Source of the DNA: Marixanthotalea marina
Lineage (GTDB): Bacteria; Bacteroidota; Bacteroidia; Flavobacteriales; Flavobacteriaceae
Length of the DNA stretch: 64,000 bases
NCBI GenBank assembly: GCA_018883545.1
Contig: JAHLEH010000008.1
Location: forward strand, 1-64,000
Direction: 5' to 3'
Positions 16,014-23,574 of this stretch are shown here, piece by piece. Position numbers and translations under genes: made by a program. Position 1 is the stretch's first letter. The number at the start of each line of letters is the position of its first letter. The notes below the pieces were generated by a model, which saw only the letters and a program-made list of their open reading frames with translations, did not search any database and was not told the DNA's origin.

Positions 16014-17963
<1,950 letters not shown>

Positions 17964-18046: not shown

Positions 18047-18422
18047 CAAAATTACAAAGGCTTTTTAAAGTATTTTATCGATTTTACGTTATAATTATCA
18101 ACATTTGTTAATTACTTAAAAGTGCCTTAAATCGCCTAAAAAACACCTTAAAATTGATTTTACTGTTTTTTATCAATTTTTAAAAATGAAAAACACACAA
18201 AGTTGTTTATAGTCCATATTTTGGCGTTCATCAATTTCAAAACAACACCCAAAACAATACTTTTTCAATCATATTCAACAGAACTCCCTTTCCTTAATGA
18301 ACGAAAGCAAGTAATGATTATTACTTGTTATTGAACCAACAAATTATATTCACATTTCTTGTTAATTTAACAATATACTATAGTATATCACAAAAAAATG
18401 TGCTTAGTATGTTATTTCTATA
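18047..18422. other. long AT-rich intergenic stretch, no gene seen
   Basis: About 375 bases between the gyrB promoter and the gat operon promoter. It is very AT-rich, with several TA-rich runs (for example ATACTATAGTATAT at 18374-18387, a near palindrome). I see no coding frame with support, no tRNA and no clear terminator in it. Confidence 0.6.
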
Positions 18423-18430
18423 TATATTTG
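18423..18430 (+). promoter_or_regulatory. promoter (-7 box) of the gat-aspS attenuator
   Basis: TATATTTG matches the -7 consensus exactly; transcription would start at about 18434-18436, some 14 bases before the leader peptide. The -33 region is weak: no TTTG at 19-21 bases. Confidence 0.65.
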
Positions 18431-18448
18431 GTGCTCAAAAAAGTATTT

Positions 18449-18493
18449 ATGACTAATAACAACAATAATAATTTCAATAATCCTAATGATTAG
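18449..18493 (+). CDS. Asn-rich leader peptide of the gat-aspS operon
   Basis: A 14-codon frame ATG to TAG encoding MTNNNNNNFNNPND. Nine of fourteen residues are asparagine, six of them in a row (AAT AAC AAC AAT AAT AAT, 18455-18472), with the last Asn codon three codons before the stop. It begins about 14 bases after the predicted start of transcription and ends just before the antiterminator arm. By analogy with the his, thr and pheST leaders, ribosomes would stall here when charged tRNA-Asn is scarce. The downstream genes make amidated aminoacyl-tRNA, which fits. It is too short to be confirmed as translated from sequence alone. Confidence 0.8.
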   Translation: MTNNNNNNFNNPND

Positions 18494-18551
18494 GACTGGA
18501 AGGTTATTGTTAAAAATATATAAGGCCTTCCAAATTCGGAAGGCTTTTTTT
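18481..18551 (+). terminator. attenuator: pause hairpin, antiterminator arm and intrinsic terminator
   Basis: Four segments can be seen. Segment 1, TCCTAA (18481-18486), pairs with TTAGGA (18490-18495) across TGA and includes the leader stop codon. Segment 2 is GGAAGGTT (18498-18505). Segment 3 is GGCCTTCC (18524-18531). Segment 4 is GGAAGGCT (18538-18545), followed by seven T. Pairing 3:4 gives a GCCTTCC/GGAAGGC stem plus T tract, an intrinsic terminator. Pairing 2:3 (six Watson-Crick pairs plus two G-T) prevents it. A ribosome stalled on Asn codons would block segment 1 and free segment 2, favouring antitermination; one at the stop codon would cover segment 2 and allow termination. Confidence 0.82.
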
Positions 18552-18569
18552 AATATAAAAATTTAAGAC

Positions 18570-18836
18570 ATGAGCAAGATTATGACCGTCGACATTTTGT
18601 CGAGCATTAAAGGAGCACAACCCAGTGAGGCTGTGAACAAATTATTTGAAGTGATTAAAAACGCACAATCAACTAATAATAACTCTTTTAATGCCAATCA
18701 TAACAATGTGTCTCTAGATGATTTGCGCGATGATGTGGTTATTGAAAGCTCTGCACAGGAAAAACAAATCATCATAGAAAACTTTCCCAAAGAAAAAAAT
18801 GGGTATTTGGTGGTTTCTAAAATTATAGAAGAATAA
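18570..18836 (+). CDS. small hypothetical protein, first gene after the attenuator
   Basis: An 88-residue acidic protein of unknown function, beginning 19 bases after the terminator T tract. Residues 1-34 look helical (VDILSSIKGAQPSEAVNKLF), followed by an Asn-rich low-complexity linker (STNNNSFNANHNN, about 34-46) and a Glu-rich C-terminal helix ending KIIEE. Its stop codon is two bases before gatA, so it is clearly part of the operon and sits where gatC is found in many genomes. I see no GatC signature. It may be an unrecognised partner of the amidotransferase, but nothing in the sequence proves that. Confidence 0.7.
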   Translation: MSKIMTVDILSSIKGAQPSEAVNKLFEVIKNAQSTNNNSFNANHNNVSLDDLRDDVVIESSAQEKQIIIENFPKEKNGYLVVSKIIEE

Positions 18837-18838
18837 TT

Positions 18839-20239
18839 ATGGACTCACAAATACTACACATACACCAACAGTTAACAAACAAGGAAATATCTTGTGCGGC
18901 TTTGGTTCAGGAAAAATTGGAAGCTTTAAAACCAAACACCAACAACACTGTAAATTCCTTGCTAGATAACTTGGCTTTGGAACTTGCGGCCAAGGTAGAT
19001 GAAAAAATAGCCAAGGGCGAACCTATTGGTGTTTTAGAAGGTATTCCCTTTGGCATTAAAGATGTCTATATGGTTCAAGGCACTTATACCACGGCAAGTT
19101 CTAACTTATTGAAAAATTATAAATCGGCTTATACAGCCACGGCCATACAAAAATTACTCGACGCTGGTGCCATTCCTATTGTTAAAGAAAACTGCGACAG
19201 TTTCGGACATGGTTCTTCCAGCGAAAATACCATTTTTGGCGCTGTAAAAAATGCTATTAACCCCGAATTGGTTGGTGGTGGTTCCAGTGGAGGCTCAGCC
19301 GTTAATGTAGCTAAAGACTACACTGTTTTCTCCATTGGTGGCGATACGGGAGGTTCTATTCGTCAACCTGCTGGTTACAACCACGTGTATGGTTTAAAAC
19401 CTACTTACGGACGAATTTCACGCTACGGACTCATGGCTTATGCTTCTTCAACCGATTGTGTTGGGCCCATAGCCAAAACAATTGAAGATATTCGTATTGT
19501 TTTAAACGTAATGAGTGGCAAAGACGCCAAAGACCAAACCACCTATGCTTCTGAAGAAATAAAAGCTGAAAATATTTCGGATTATTCAAACATTAAATCC
19601 GTTGGGTATTTTAAAGATTTTGTTGAAAGCGATGCTATTGACCCTAAAATTAAAGCTGACTTCTTAGCAGCTATTGAAAAAATTAAAGCTAAAGGTATTA
19701 CGGTAAAAGAACTGGATTTCTTTAAATCGGACATATTAGTTTCTACCTATTACACCTTGGCCATGGCCGAAACAGCCTCTAACCTATCCCGCTTGGATGG
19801 TTCTAATTATGGCAATCGTATTGAGGATAAAAACTTAAAAGAATCGTATGCCATTACACGTTCTGAAAATTTTTCGGAAGAAACCAAACGCCGAATTGTG
19901 GGGGGCAACCAAGTATTATCCCAAGGATTTTCAGATGAAATCTATTTAAAAAGCTTGGCGCTTCGCGATGCTATTTCAGCAAATTTTGAAAAGGATTTTA
20001 CAGAGGTTGATATTATTTTATCTCCTGTAACACCCAGCAATCCGCCAAAAATAGGAGATAGCTTAAAAAACCCACACGCCATGTATTTAAGTGATGCTTA
20101 CACGGTTGGTTTCAGTTTAGGACAATTACCAACGTTTACAGTACCACAAGGCACCAACACAGGCCTACAAATAACGGCCGCTAAAAATAACGACGAACTT
20201 GTTTTGAAGTTTGCTAACTTCTTAAAAGATACGATATAA
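18839..20239 (+). CDS. gatA: Asp/Glu-tRNA amidotransferase subunit A
   Basis: A 466-residue glutaminase subunit that releases ammonia from glutamine and feeds it to GatB, converting Asp-tRNA-Asn to Asn-tRNA-Asn (or Glu-tRNA-Gln to Gln-tRNA-Gln). The amidase signature GGGSSGGSAVNVA is at residues 146-158. The Ser-cisSer-Lys triad is visible as K74 (PFGIKD), S149 and S173 (GGDTGGSIRQPAG). It overlaps gatB by one base (TAATG at 20237-20241), pointing to translational coupling. It is preceded by an Asn-sensing attenuator, suggesting tRNA-Asn is the main substrate. Confidence 0.96.
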   Translation: MDSQILHIHQQLTNKEISCAALVQEKLEALKPNTNNTVNSLLDNLALELAAKVDEKIAKGEPIGVLEGIPFGIKDVYMVQGTYTTASSNLLKNYKSAYTATAIQKLLDAGAIPIVKENCDSFGHGSSSENTIFGAVKNAINPELVGGGSSGGSAVNVAKDYTVFSIGGDTGGSIRQPAGYNHVYGLKPTYGRISRYGLMAYASSTDCVGPIAKTIEDIRIVLNVMSGKDAKDQTTYASEEIKAENISDYSNIKSVGYFKDFVESDAIDPKIKADFLAAIEKIKAKGITVKELDFFKSDILVSTYYTLAMAETASNLSRLDGSNYGNRIEDKNLKESYAITRSENFSEETKRRIVGGNQVLSQGFSDEIYLKSLALRDAISANFEKDFTEVDIILSPVTPSNPPKIGDSLKNPHAMYLSDAYTVGFSLGQLPTFTVPQGTNTGLQITAAKNNDELVLKFANFLKDTI

Positions 20240-23200
20240 TGGAATTGGAACAATTAGACGCGGCTTTAAAAGCCTACGAATTAGAATTGGTTATCGGATT
20301 GGAAACCCACGTTCGGTTGAACACTAAAACCAAATTGTTCTGTTCTTGTCCAAACCAAGAAATAGACACACCAAACCAAAATATTTGTCCCGTTTGTACT
20401 GGTCAGATGGGTGTTTTGCCTGCTATCAATAAAGAAGCCATAAGAAAAGCTATTTATTTTGGAAAAGCCGTAAAATCTACCTTTGAAAATGAAATTATTT
20501 CTTGGGACAGGAAACATTACGAATACCCAGACAACCCCAAAAACATACAAATTACCCAATTCCACAATCCTATCATTCCTGATGGGCAGGTATCTTGCTA
20601 TCGTAACGATGGGAGTCAGTTTACAGTAAATTTAACACAGGTTCATATTGAGGAAGATGCTGCCAAATTAATGCACGAAAAAAACGTGTCTTTGGTGGAC
20701 TTTAATAAAGCGGGTGTACCATTGATTGAAATTGTAACCGAACCTTGTATTCACCATATTGAGGACGCTTCAACTTACGCACAATACATTCAACGTATTG
20801 TCCAAAATCTAAAAATTTCTGAAGCCAATCTTGAAAAAGGTGAATTTAAATCGGATGTATCTGTGTCTTTGCGTAAAAAGCACAGTTATACTTTAAATCC
20901 ACGTACTGAAATCAAAAACCTAAACTCCTTTAAGTTTATGGTAGAAGCTTTAAAAGAAGAAGTTGAAAAGCAACTTAACTATTATTTAGAGCACAAAGAA
21001 TTCAGACCAGACCAAACTACGGTTCTTTTTGATGCCGATTTAAAACAAACAAAAACCATGCGTAAGAAGGAATATGAAGCCGATTACCGCTTTATATCAG
21101 AACCCGACTTACCATTTGTAAACATAAAACAAGCCATAGAAAGCATACACGTAGATGCAAGTGCTTTGCCGTATGCAGTGGAATCTATTTTGATAAACGG
21201 TGGCGTTTTGCCACAGGATGCCAAATTCTTTACGGCAGATTCTCTACGGTCTGAAACCTTTGTAGCCATTAACAATGAGCTGAAAGACCCACTTTTTGTT
21301 GCCAAGACTTTAACAAATAATATCAAGCCAGAGGAATACGATAAGATTCAAAATATTTCAGATGTTATAGACATTTTCAACTTGTTTAAGCAAGACAAAG
21401 TAACCGCTGTATTATTTCAAAATGCCATTAAGTCTTTGCTTTTAGATGCTACGTTTGATTTCAAAACCTATTTTGAAGAAAACTCCATTTCCGAAGAAAA
21501 AATACATGACGCTATTAGCAAGGTAATTTCCGAAAACGAAGCTATTGCTAACGACATTAAATCTGGAAATCAAGGGAAAGCTGGTATTTTAGTTGGAAAA
21601 GTGATTGCCATTATCGGCAAAGGCGCTTCTGGAAAAGTAATTCGCGAAGGGATTTTAAACCAGTTGCAAAGCATAAAGTTGAAAGTTGAAAGTTCTTCTG
21701 AAGAACCTACTAAAAGACCAGCAACCAACAACCAACAACCAACGGCCAAAGAAGAAGCCCTGCCTCAAATTCCAATCGTTATAAAGGATGAATACCGAAC
21801 TCACTTAATCTCGGATATTTCAGAAGAAAACATTTCTGAAAAAGTAACATTTGCAGGTTGGGTAGCTAGTGTACGCGACCACGGTGAATTGATTTTTATC
21901 GATTTACGTGATTCGAGCACAGAGAAATTCCAAATCCGTTTAAGCAGGGAATCGTTTCCAAATTTAGACGAGTTAGTGAAGTTAAAACCAGAATCGGTTA
22001 TCACTGTTACAGGCACGATTGTACAACGTGATGAAGATGACTACAACACGGCTTTAAGAACCGGAAAAATTGAGTTGGAAGCTTACGAACTGGATATTTT
22101 AAATCTATCCAGAACCTTGCCTTTTGAAATAAAAAGAGCAACCAAAACCAATGAAAATGTACGCTTTCAATATAAATATCTAGACCACAGAAATGATGAT
22201 GTACGTAGGGCAATTGTAAACAGGCATAAGGTTATTAAATTACTTCGCGATATTTTGGATGAAGAACATTTCTTGGAAATAGAAACACCTATTTTAAGTG
22301 CCGGCACCGATGAAGGTGCGCGCGAATTCATCGTTCCTTCCCGTAAACAAGCCGGTGCATTTTACACCTTACCACAGGCACCTCAGCAATTTAAACAAAT
22401 GTTGATGGTAAGTGGTTACGAGAAATACTTCCAAATAGCACGTTGCTTTAGGGATGAAGATTCCCGTGGCGACCGCCAACCGGAATTCACACAATTGGAT
22501 TTGGAAATGGCTTATGCCAGCATGCAGCAAATCATCGATTTGAACACCAAAATGTTCAATGAAGTTGTTACCAAAATATATGGCAACAAATGGATTTTAC
22601 ACCCGTTTCAAGTGCTAACTTACCAAGAAGCCATGGATTTATATGGTTGTGACCGACCTGACTTGCGCTTTGGTTTACAGCTACAAGACATAACCGATAT
22701 TGTAAAAGACACCACATTCCAAGTGTTCAGCAAACCTATTGAAGAAGGCGGTATTGTAAAATGTATTAAGGTGTCTGCCAAAGAACAAGGCAACAAGCGT
22801 TTGTCTAAAGGACAAATTGAAAAACTAACGGCCATTGCACAGCAATACGGTTTGGGTGGCCTGGCCTATATTATTGTTAATGAAAACGATTTACAATCAC
22901 CCATCATTAAGTTTTTAGGAGAAGATATTGCCGCTGGTATTATTAAAACAACCAATGCACAAGTAGGTGATATTGTGTTTTTCTCAGCAGCCGATTATGC
23001 CACGGCCAACAAAGCTTTGGATGCCGTTCGTCAGGAATTGGGGCAGATGCTAAAACTTATCAATCCAAAAGAGTTAAGGCCGGCTTGGGTGGTTGATTTT
23101 CCAATGTTTGAAAAAACCGATGAGGGCAGATGGACCTTTACCCATAACCCTTTCTCTATGCCAGCAGTTGCCGACATCGATAAGCACATGAACGGCAAAG

Positions 23201-23574
23201 AAGAGGAAATAGGAAGCATTATCGCCCAACAATATGATTTAATCTTAAATGGTTACGAAATTGGAGGTGGCTCCGTGCGTGCACACAAGCCCGAAATTTT
23301 AGAAGCTACCTATAGAAATATGGGCTACAATAAAGAAGACATGCTTAAAAGTGTGGGCACTATGTACAAAGCCTTCCATTATGGAGCACCTCCGCATGGC
23401 GGTATTGCTTGGGGCGTTGACCGACTCATGATGATTTTAGAGAAAAAAGCGTCTATTCGTGAAGTAATGGCGTTCCCTAAAACAGGCACCAGCGATGATT
23501 TATTGTTTGGAGCACCTTCTATGTTATCGGACAAAAAAGTGGAAGAAATGAATGTTAAAGTGATTAAAAAATAA
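20239..23574 (+). CDS. gatB/aspS: GatB-AspRS fusion: amidotransferase subunit B joined to aspartyl-tRNA synthetase
   Basis: An 1111-residue two-enzyme protein. Residues 1-475 are GatB: IGLETHVRLNTKTKLFC, a CSCPN...CPVC zinc-binding set, DFNKAGVPLIEIVTEPC and the FKFMVEAL segment. A flexible linker (about 478-512) follows. Residues 516-1111 are aspartyl-tRNA synthetase: an OB-fold anticodon domain (FAGWVASVRDHG), class II motif 2 (RCFRDEDSRGDRQPEFTQLD), a GAD-like insert, and motif 3 (GGIAWGVDRLMMIL). Fusing the enzyme that mischarges tRNA with Asp to the one that amidates it would allow channelling. AspRS charging specificity cannot be read from motifs alone. Confidence 0.93.
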   Translation: MELEQLDAALKAYELELVIGLETHVRLNTKTKLFCSCPNQEIDTPNQNICPVCTGQMGVLPAINKEAIRKAIYFGKAVKSTFENEIISWDRKHYEYPDNPKNIQITQFHNPIIPDGQVSCYRNDGSQFTVNLTQVHIEEDAAKLMHEKNVSLVDFNKAGVPLIEIVTEPCIHHIEDASTYAQYIQRIVQNLKISEANLEKGEFKSDVSVSLRKKHSYTLNPRTEIKNLNSFKFMVEALKEEVEKQLNYYLEHKEFRPDQTTVLFDADLKQTKTMRKKEYEADYRFISEPDLPFVNIKQAIESIHVDASALPYAVESILINGGVLPQDAKFFTADSLRSETFVAINNELKDPLFVAKTLTNNIKPEEYDKIQNISDVIDIFNLFKQDKVTAVLFQNAIKSLLLDATFDFKTYFEENSISEEKIHDAISKVISENEAIANDIKSGNQGKAGILVGKVIAIIGKGASGKVIREGILNQLQSIKLKVESSSEEPTKRPATNNQQPTAKEEALPQIPIVIKDEYRTHLISDISEENISEKVTFAGWVASVRDHGELIFIDLRDSSTEKFQIRLSRESFPNLDELVKLKPESVITVTGTIVQRDEDDYNTALRTGKIELEAYELDILNLSRTLPFEIKRATKTNENVRFQYKYLDHRNDDVRRAIVNRHKVIKLLRDILDEEHFLEIETPILSAGTDEGAREFIVPSRKQAGAFYTLPQAPQQFKQMLMVSGYEKYFQIARCFRDEDSRGDRQPEFTQLDLEMAYASMQQIIDLNTKMFNEVVTKIYGNKWILHPFQVLTYQEAMDLYGCDRPDLRFGLQLQDITDIVKDTTFQVFSKPIEEGGIVKCIKVSAKEQGNKRLSKGQIEKLTAIAQQYGLGGLAYIIVNENDLQSPIIKFLGEDIAAGIIKTTNAQVGDIVFFSAADYATANKALDAVRQELGQMLKLINPKELRPAWVVDFPMFEKTDEGRWTFTHNPFSMPAVADIDKHMNGKEEEIGSIIAQQYDLILNGYEIGGGSVRAHKPEILEATYRNMGYNKEDMLKSVGTMYKAFHYGAPPHGGIAWGVDRLMMILEKKASIREVMAFPKTGTSDDLLFGAPSMLSDKKVEEMNVKVIKK
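21676..21743 (+). repeat. word-like repeat encoding the GatB-AspRS linker
   Basis: The linker DNA contains AAGTTGAAAGTTGAAAGTT (21676-21694), then GTTCTTCTGAAGAAC (21692-21706, a near palindrome), then ACCAGCAACCAACAACCAAC (21718-21737). It reads in frame as a Ser/Glu/Thr/Asn/Gln-rich linker. Such tandem words are typical of flavobacterial intergenic spacers (from memory), so the fusion may have kept a former spacer. Confidence 0.5.

What the first reader, a model, noticed from the sequence alone, without database searches (positions are those of the whole stretch)
18423..18570. Asn-codon attenuator controlling gatA and the gatB-aspS fusion
A promoter box is followed by a 14-codon leader with nine Asn codons (MTNNNNNNFNNPND), a pause hairpin spanning its stop codon, an antiterminator arm (18498-18505), and an intrinsic terminator (18524-18551) that shares the middle arm. 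This is the exact architecture of ribosome-mediated attenuation. The genes behind it make amidated aminoacyl-tRNA, and a GatB-AspRS fusion would make Asp-tRNA-Asn and amidate it. So the cell would sense scarce Asn-tRNA through the leader and raise the enzymes that produce it. I know of leaders for his, thr, trp and pheST but not of an Asn leader for gat genes.
Basis: partly seen in the sequence, partly recalled or inferred. Interest (0 to 1): 0.93.

Follow-up and report, generated by a model that had tools for sequence, protein, structure and literature searches.

The report
Asparagine-sensing attenuator of asparagine synthesis
In front of the genes that likely form this flavobacterium's only route to asparagine lies a tiny reading frame in which nine of fourteen codons are asparagine, followed by a predicted transcription terminator; the pair is predicted to switch the genes on when asparagine-charged tRNA runs short, and the same design stands in front of two other, unrelated asparagine-making genes in related bacteria.

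Summary
Window 18449-18493 encodes MTNNNNNNFNNPND, followed by an intrinsic-terminator sequence (18522-18551) whose 5' arm can pair instead with a segment 4 nt after the stop codon. Behind it lie a gatC-like gene, gatA and a gatB-aspS fusion. 54 of 94 distinct upstream regions carry the same leader and terminator; three of these are gammaproteobacteria (Paraglaciecola) that appear to have acquired the operon and kept the Asn codons although peptide, promoter and codon pairing changed. In 199 family genomes none of the 32 with this GatA has canonical AsnB, against 145 of 167 others; the window's genome has no AsnA match and no AsnB over cut-off, so the operon is probably its Asn route. Asn-codon leaders with terminators also precede asnA (5 of 23 loci) and asnB (12 of 100 regions, non-random sample), the asnB ones with an unrelated RNA sequence. 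Best reading: ribosome-mediated transcription attenuation sensing Asn-tRNA. No experiment exists; covariation is weak because the middle arm is invariant; 40 of 94 regions lack the leader; a classical 1:2 protector is not supported by folding. The mechanism is of a known kind; the amino acid and target were not found in the papers I could search.

The parts
18423..18430 (+). TAnnTTTG -7 box (TATATTTG), Bacteroidota sigma-A type promoter element
   Evidence: sequence; such a box lies upstream of the ATG in 51 of 51 flavobacterial-type gat leaders; consensus given in PMC9723704 (passages)
18449..18493 (+). leader ORF MTNNNNNNFNNPND, stop TAG 18491-18493
   Evidence: TAG stop in 54 of 54 leaders
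18461..18476 (+). segment 1: Asn codons that can pair with 18497-18511
   Evidence: fold of 18459-18513, -13.2 kcal/mol
18482..18494 (+). small hairpin CCTAA-TGA-TTAGG across the stop codon
   Evidence: sequence; part of the minimum-energy folds
18497..18511 (+). segment 2 (core GGAAGG 18498-18503), antiterminator 5' arm
   Evidence: 2:3 fold -12.3 kcal/mol; 4-5 nt after the stop in 54 of 54
18524..18531 (+). segment 3 (core CCTTCC 18526-18531), shared middle arm
   Evidence: core invariant in 54 of 54
18522..18551 (+). intrinsic terminator: segments 3:4 plus U-tract 18545-18551
   Evidence: (terminator in 54 of 54)
18570..18836 (+). gatC-like ORF, first gene of the operon
   Evidence: TIGR00135 E 1.5e-4, 22 bits, under the cut-off of 47.1; start of the ORF recurs in relatives (by eye)
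18839..20239 (+). gatA
   Evidence: TIGR00132 433.7 bits (cut-off 481.1), PF01425
20239..23574 (+). gatB-aspS fusion (GatB 14-477, AspRS 518-1111)
   Evidence: NF004012 394.6 bits and NF001750 711.4 bits, both over cut-off; PF02934, PF02637, PF00152, PF02938

Best explanation
The element is predicted to be a ribosome-mediated transcription attenuator that senses asparagine-charged tRNA and controls the gatC-gatA-gatB::aspS operon, which is likely this cell's only way to make asparagine. Proposed working: RNA polymerase starts at the TAnnTTTG promoter and a ribosome follows it through the 14-codon leader. If Asn-tRNA is plentiful, the ribosome reaches the TAG stop, where its footprint covers segment 2 (GGAAGG, 4 nt beyond the stop); segment 3 is then free to pair with segment 4 and transcription ends near 18551. 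If Asn-tRNA is scarce, the ribosome stalls on one of the nine Asn codons, segment 2 stays open and captures segment 3 (antiterminator), so polymerase reads on into the operon. A non-discriminating AspRS fused to GatB would put Asp on tRNA-Asn, and GatCAB would amidate it to Asn-tRNA-Asn, closing the loop. Shown by sequence or calls: leader, codons, alternative pairings, terminator sequence, conservation, gene content, lack of AsnA and of canonical AsnB over cut-off. Inferred: promoter activity, leader translation, stalling, termination and read-through, and the AspRS specificity.
For: Leader: 54 of 94 distinct upstream regions have the Asn ORF, against 3 of 9400 shuffles at the same score; all 54 have a terminator, a TAG stop (3 of 34 ORFs of 200 codons or more in the window end in TAG) and segment 2 4-5 nt after the stop. 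Folding with a 13-nt ribosome mask: a stall at each of the 475 Asn codons of the 54 leaders gives the antiterminator; a ribosome at the stop prevents it in 51 of 54. Codon choice is not just pairing: 158 of 475 Asn codons touch the longest 1:2 helix; the three Paraglaciecola leaders (helix 5, 5, 7 bp, no longer Asn run with GTTATTG) and three asnB leaders tested (5, 4, 4 bp) keep 8-9 Asn. Target: AsnB (NF006949) over cut-off in 0 of 32 family genomes with this GatA versus 145 of 167 others (Fisher p = 8e-23, not corrected for kinship), and in 0 of 10 genomes reached through named loci, three Paraglaciecola included (overlap with the 199 not excluded). Own genome: AsnRS (610 bits), no AsnA match, no AsnB over cut-off; the one tRNA-Asn found, among loci of 30 of 37 tRNA matches, has U1-A72, the pair GatCAB reads, and the tRNA-Asp found has G1-C72 (rule in PMC4206432 and PMC9976931, passages). 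AspRS: the fused enzyme shares RDHG with the P. aeruginosa Asp/Asn enzyme 4wj3, where the E. coli and Thermus Asp enzymes have RDLG; H in 71 of 71 fused AspRS aligned, K in the genome's own housekeeping AspRS. Independent parallels: Asn-rich leader plus terminator before asnA (5 of 23 loci) and asnB (12 of 100 regions; 1 of 2000 shuffles). In those 100 regions 11 of 11 strongly Asn-rich ORFs come with a terminator; for other amino acids Phe 1 of 3, Leu 1 of 10, Ile 0 of 6, the rest have no such ORF.
Against: 40 of 94 upstream regions have no such leader, so the operon can run without it. Segment 3 never varies, so covariation inside the gat leaders is limited: one pair goes G-C 47, G-U 3, A-U 4; the segment-2/segment-3 extension pairs in 22 of 54 (shuffle mean 16.8, p = 0.02, not corrected for relatedness). 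Without any ribosome the minimum-energy fold up to segment 3 is 2:3 in 48 of 54, not the protecting 1:2, so 'no translation = termination' is not supported; the same in 9 of 12 asnB leaders. The terminator (median -15.8) is more stable than the antiterminator (-11.5 kcal/mol), so read-through would have to be kinetic. A broad Asn-synthetase model (TIGR01536) is, by its E-values, over cut-off in 11 of the 32 GatA genomes, though not in the window's own; the own genome has one marginal PF00733 match (21.8 bits, cut-off 21, in a 396-aa frame). The 4wj3 chain leads the Thermus Asp enzyme by only 0.3 bits. GatA and GatC score under their curated cut-offs. At a looser threshold 12 of 16 Asn-rich ORFs before asnB have a terminator. 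GlnRS was not searched. No transcript data were available.
Confidence: 0.86

Rival explanations
1. The Asn codons are structural: they exist only to pair with GTTATTG after the stop, and the RNA is an ordinary leader of the aromatic (Phe/Tyr) type or a passive hairpin.
For: Watson-Crick 1:2 helices of 8 bp or more in 47 of 54 leaders. A model built from the gat leaders (R1) also finds leaders before aromatic genes in other Bacteroidota families (L177, L178) that have NN beside their Phe/Tyr codons, and Rfam's nearest family is Phe_leader, 29.9 bits against a gathering score of 55.
Against: Only 158 of 475 Asn codons touch that helix; the three Paraglaciecola leaders and three asnB leaders tested keep 8-9 Asn without it. 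The window's leader has one Phe codon and no Tyr. The genes behind Asn leaders are asnA, asnB or gatCAB-aspS.
Confidence: 0.06
2. The terminator works alone or with another signal (a protein, a small RNA or a ligand) and the short ORF is untranslated.
For: No translation data; without a ribosome the fold up to segment 3 favours 2:3.
Against: Start, frame and TAG kept in 54 of 54, with lengths of 45, 48 or 54 nt only (reading frame was a condition of the search, the TAG was not); Asn content kept in Paraglaciecola; no Rfam family at gathering score in the window.
Confidence: 0.05
3. Attenuation is real but the operon's main product is not Asn-tRNA: GatCAB mainly serves Gln-tRNA or another amidation.
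For: GatCAB can amidate Glu-tRNA-Gln (PMC9976931, passages); GlnRS was not searched here; the tRNA-Gln found begins with U.
Against: GatB is fused to AspRS in 70 of 70 related loci with enough contig; exclusion of AsnB; Asn codons in the leader.
Confidence: 0.06

Closest known systems
Ribosome-mediated attenuators of trp, his, thr, phe operons (e.g. Rfam Phe_leader RF01859, Thr_leader RF00506, Bacteroid-trp RF01692)
   Same: Short ORF rich in the regulated amino acid, mutually exclusive antiterminator and terminator, biosynthetic genes behind it.
   Different: Amino acid is Asn; target is a tRNA-dependent amidation operon; no Rfam family reaches its gathering score; masking of segment 2 at the stop codon, not a 1:2 protector, is what folding supports.
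T-box riboswitch of the Clostridium acetobutylicum gatCAB operon (Saad et al. 2012, 2013; titles seen in the reference list of PMC4206432; content recalled)
   Same: Same pathway, same logic: uncharged tRNA raises tRNA-dependent Asn synthesis by preventing termination.
   Different: There the RNA binds the tRNA itself; here a translating ribosome would read Asn codons. No T-box match here. An older T-box survey found no T-box before amidotransferase genes of its species (PMC2494555, passages).
Non-discriminating AspRS plus GatCAB as Asn route (Deinococcus, Thermus; Bdellovibrio with one AspRS; PMC4206432, abstract and passages read)
   Same: AsnRS present, AsnA/AsnB absent, tRNA-Asn with U1-A72, GatCAB present.
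   Different: Here a bacterial-type second AspRS is fused to GatB; that paper reports a second AspRS in five of its 18 genera lacking Asn synthetases, all Deinococcus-Thermus.
Leader-peptide attenuators reported for amino-acid operons of Flavobacterium psychrophilum (PMC9723704, passages and section 19 read)
   Same: Same family of bacteria; leader-peptide attenuation of amino-acid operons claimed; conserved 5' elements before pheA and hisG named.
   Different: No asparagine mention in the main text and no gat leader in section 19; its supplementary Table S7 was not available to me.

Membership tests
Ribosome-mediated transcription attenuator | Short ORF with codons of the amino acid that the operon supplies | tested here: met
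   Nine Asn of 14 codons; 54 of 94 upstream regions; shuffles 3 of 9400
Ribosome-mediated transcription attenuator | Intrinsic terminator between leader ORF and first gene | tested here: met
   54 of 54; sequence criterion only
Ribosome-mediated transcription attenuator | Antiterminator that excludes the terminator and is controlled by ribosome position | tested here: met
   In silico only: 2:3 forms with stalls at all 475 Asn codons, blocked at the stop in 51 of 54
Ribosome-mediated transcription attenuator | 1:2 protector/pause hairpin | tested here: inconclusive
   1:2 can form (-13.2 kcal/mol in the window) but is the best fold in only 6 of 54 once segment 3 is present
Ribosome-mediated transcription attenuator | Compensatory change in segments 2, 3, 4 | tested here: inconclusive
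   Segment 3 invariant; G-C/G-U/A-U 47/3/4 at one pair; p = 0.02 at another; same topology with different letters in asnB leaders
Ribosome-mediated transcription attenuator | Leader translated; read-through rises on starvation for the amino acid | not testable with these tools
   No expression data
T-box riboswitch | Rfam T-box model match | tested here: not met
   No match at gathering score in the window; none among 37 matches with E up to 10 in 18400-18600
Rfam Phe_leader (RF01859) | Score at or above gathering (55 bits) | tested here: not met
   29.9 bits
Non-discriminating AspRS | Charges tRNA-Asn as well as tRNA-Asp | not testable with these tools
   Only resemblance: RDHG as in P. aeruginosa 4wj3, RDLG in E. 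coli and Thermus chains, RDKG in own housekeeping enzyme; that this residue matters is recalled
GatCAB amidotransferase | GatA, GatB, GatC models over curated cut-offs | tested here: inconclusive
   GatB over cut-off; GatA 433.7 of 481.1; GatC 22 of 47.1

The most novel reading that the evidence does not exclude
Asn-tRNA-sensing ribosome attenuators are a regulatory class of Bacteroidota that has been placed in front of three non-homologous ways of making asparagine (asnA, asnB, and tRNA-dependent gatCAB-aspS), with at least two unrelated RNA sequences and therefore at least two origins, and one of them has travelled with its operon into a gammaproteobacterium, where it was given a new promoter and a new peptide but kept its Asn codons.
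Probability: 0.7. Interest if true: 0.8.

Novelty: new variant of a known kind. Interest (0 to 1): 0.76.

Why it matters
Asparagine is missing from the textbook list of amino acids under ribosome-mediated attenuation (recalled: his, thr, trp, phe, leu, ilv). If true, this adds it, and does so for a pathway in which the amino acid is made on the very tRNA that the leader senses, so sensor and product are one molecule. The recurrence on three unrelated enzymes would make Asn attenuation a natural experiment in convergent regulation, and the replacement of AsnB by the gat-aspS operon would explain how the flavobacteria that carry it make Asn. It also suggests a cheap annotation rule: an Asn-run leader plus terminator marks an Asn-making gene.

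Tried and rejected
Generic sigma-70 scan: no + strand site at the leader and no excess over shuffles; the TAnnTTTG box fits instead. Rfam scans found no family at gathering score. A pattern scan for the Asn block in 395 phylum-level genomes gave 52 matches in 48 genomes, not followed up beyond the own one. The RNA model R1 uses RNAalifold's consensus (2:3 plus stop-codon hairpin), probably because segment 4 is misaligned in indel rows; it was used only to find leaders (4 of 395 genomes including the own one). In one search the terminator finder picked the antiterminator for six asnB leaders; corrected. Reverse-strand loci were wrongly oriented; fixed. A role as terminator of an upstream gene was rejected: the upstream gyrB-like ORF (16014-17954) is divergent (its name is by eye). 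Structure prediction was not run.

Sampling notes: asnB regions were 100 from 99 genomes (98 of the 145 over cut-off, G174 just under, G127 twice), not random: 3 of the first 40, 7 of 20 (five of them picked for frame length after the first hits), 0 of 20, 2 of 20. asnA: 23 of the 25 rows were scanned (22 over cut-off, L200 just under); L201 and L202 were left out as marginal matches; L191 was added by eye (five Asn in a 36-codon ORF). Rows dropped: L096 (3 nt upstream) and duplicates among 105 gat loci (94 distinct left; they include L106, a 41%-identical cyanobacterial protein without GatB-AspRS behind it, counted as leaderless); L106 and 29 unnamed loci are not in the tree.

Full report
WHAT IS THERE. 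The window carries, on the + strand, a TAnnTTTG box (18423-18430), an ORF of 14 codons with nine Asn (18449-18493, MTNNNNNNFNNPND, stop TAG), and an intrinsic-terminator sequence (18522-18551) before a gatC-like ORF (18570), gatA (18839) and a gatB-aspS fusion (20239-23574). The upstream gyrB-like ORF is divergent, so the terminator lies in the operon's own 5' leader. The stretch folds far better than its shuffles (z -3.67), and none of 5000 shuffles gives so Asn-rich an ORF.

ALTERNATIVE PAIRINGS. In the window, segment 1 (Asn codons, 18461-18476) can pair with 18497-18511 (-13.2 kcal/mol), segment 2 (GGAAGG, 18498-18503) with segment 3 (CCTTCC, 18526-18531) (-12.3), and segment 3 with segment 4 (18538-18543) (-14.7). 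With a ribosome footprint assumed to reach 13 nt from the A-site codon's first base, a stall on an Asn codon leaves segment 2 able to pair, and a ribosome on the stop codon covers it.

CONSERVATION. All 54 end in TAG, have a terminator and have segment 2 4-5 nt after the stop. Folding under ribosome masks gives 2:3 for stalls at each of their 475 Asn codons, blocks it at the stop in 51 of 54, and gives 3:4 for the free full RNA in 54 of 54. Against the classical picture, the free RNA up to segment 3 prefers 2:3 in 48 of 54, so 1:2 is at most a weak protector; termination would rest on the ribosome at the stop codon. Segment 3 is invariant, as an arm with two partners might well be, but this leaves little covariation.

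LEADERLESS RELATIVES AND TRANSFER. 40 of 94 lack the leader, among them the Lutibacter, Wenyingzhuangia, Flavicella and Aquimarina loci and two of three named Polaribacter; by eye many have a TAnnTTTG box just before gatC instead. On a quick GatA tree of 73 rows (the named loci and the own one) the label needs 7 changes against 23.2 in shuffles. The three Paraglaciecola loci fall among Flavobacteriaceae (SH-aLRT 95 for the enclosing group of 58 rows, 100 for themselves; short search, no bootstrap). Their leaders (for example MTNNAQNNNWNGNNLNY) keep 8-9 Asn and the GGAAGG/CCTTCC/GGAAGG set, but their longest 1:2 helix is 5, 5 and 7 bp and they have no TAnnTTTG box (a TATACT-like box stands there by eye). 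The Asn codons have been kept, not the peptide or that pairing.

WHAT THE OPERON DOES. AsnB (NF006949) is over cut-off in 0 of 32 family genomes with this GatA (E under 1e-200) and in 145 of the 167 others (p = 8e-23); one more genome (G124) has only a 31-residue GatA piece and no AsnB, and is counted among the 167. Ten genomes reached through named loci, three Paraglaciecola included, lack it too. The broader TIGR01536 is over cut-off in 11 of the 32 (judged by E-value) but not in the own genome, which has one marginal PF00733 match. The own genome has AsnRS, no AsnA match, a separate housekeeping AspRS, and a tRNA-Asn with U1-A72, the pair GatCAB needs (PMC4206432 and PMC9976931, passages). 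GatB is fused to AspRS in 70 of 70 related loci whose contig reaches far enough. The fused AspRS has RDHG like the P. aeruginosa Asp/Asn enzyme, which leads the Thermus Asp enzyme by 0.3 bits only; the housekeeping one has RDKG. The operon is therefore best read as tRNA-dependent Asn synthesis that replaced AsnB.

THE SAME IDEA ELSEWHERE. A covariance model of the gat leaders, run over 395 class-level genomes, found three leaders in other families: a tandem pair (MKTNFNNNFYFNPKN, MMNFYFNNNFNYATPPGGD) before asnA (L176; 397 bits over cut-off), and two Phe/Tyr-rich ones before prephenate-dehydratase-like genes (L178, 163.8 bits under that model's cut-off of 219; L177, by eye, its gene broken by one in-frame stop). 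A search for asnA then gave 25 rows; of 23 loci scanned 5 have Asn-rich leaders and terminators (four by script, L191 by eye). In 100 flavobacterial asnB upstream regions 12 have an Asn-run leader and terminator (for example MFILANNNNNNNNNAKT, MLLNNNNNNNNRMP), with arms such as AAACTTG / CAAGTTT / AACTTG unlike the gat set. Stalls at all Asn codons give 2:3 in 11 of 12; at the stop it forms in 1 of 12. Shuffles give 1 of 2000, and no other amino acid shows such a link to a terminator. The asnB sample is not random.

PRIOR WORK. Ten literature searches in open-access PMC papers, whose listings are capped at 20, showed no paper on an Asn leader peptide or on one for gat genes; bear on this directly. 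PMC9723704 (section 19) reports leader-peptide attenuation of amino-acid operons in F. psychrophilum and names 5' elements before pheA and hisG; its supplement was not readable. PMC2965389 (terms only) does not mention asparagine, gatA or aspS. T-box control of C. acetobutylicum gatCAB is known (titles in PMC4206432's references). Subscription journals were mostly not covered.

VERDICT. A likely ribosome-mediated attenuator with a new amino acid and a new kind of target, part of a wider set of Asn leaders in Bacteroidota. The mechanism class is known; the sensor-target pair and its recurrence on unrelated enzymes are the news. All regulatory steps remain untested.

Noticed in passing
L241-L248, L250, L254, L300, L302 (upstream of asnB): Asn-run leader peptides with terminators before asnB in 12 of 100 flavobacterial regions, using RNA arms unlike those of the gat leader.
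   Followed up: yes
L176/L195, L182, L188, L191, L196 (upstream of asnA): Asn-rich leaders with terminators before asnA in other Bacteroidota families; two of the five (L176/L195, L196) are tandem double attenuators.
   Followed up: partly
L177:1500-1760 and L178:1500-1760: Tandem Phe/Tyr-rich leaders (MNNFFNNYFFNYSRT + MNKTMTYFFFYFFNPN; MQKQLNNYFFFFNAMR + MKRQTSTVFFYFFFIQP, read by eye) before prephenate-dehydratase-like genes, with a 3' half close to that of the gat leader (in L178 GGAAGGTTATTG and AAAGCCTTCC), hinting at a shared ancestry of Asn and aromatic leaders.
   Followed up: partly
L177:1758-2573: The prephenate-dehydratase-like gene behind the tandem aromatic leaders holds one in-frame stop codon.
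   Followed up: no
L087, L091, L093: Paraglaciecola (Gammaproteobacteria) carry the leader-gatC-gatA-gatB::aspS operon and fall among Flavobacteriaceae in the GatA tree: likely transfer between phyla with the regulator kept.
   Followed up: yes
window 20239-23574: GatB fused to a bacterial-type AspRS with RDHG, beside a separate housekeeping AspRS (RDKG) in the same genome; the fusion recurs across Bacteroidota and in one Ignavibacteriota bin (L103).
   Followed up: partly
window 18355-18380: A stretch like TTTTTTAATAATTTGACAATACA, roughly 70-95 nt before the leader ATG, recurs in several relatives (by eye); role unknown, perhaps an upstream promoter or regulator site.
   Followed up: no
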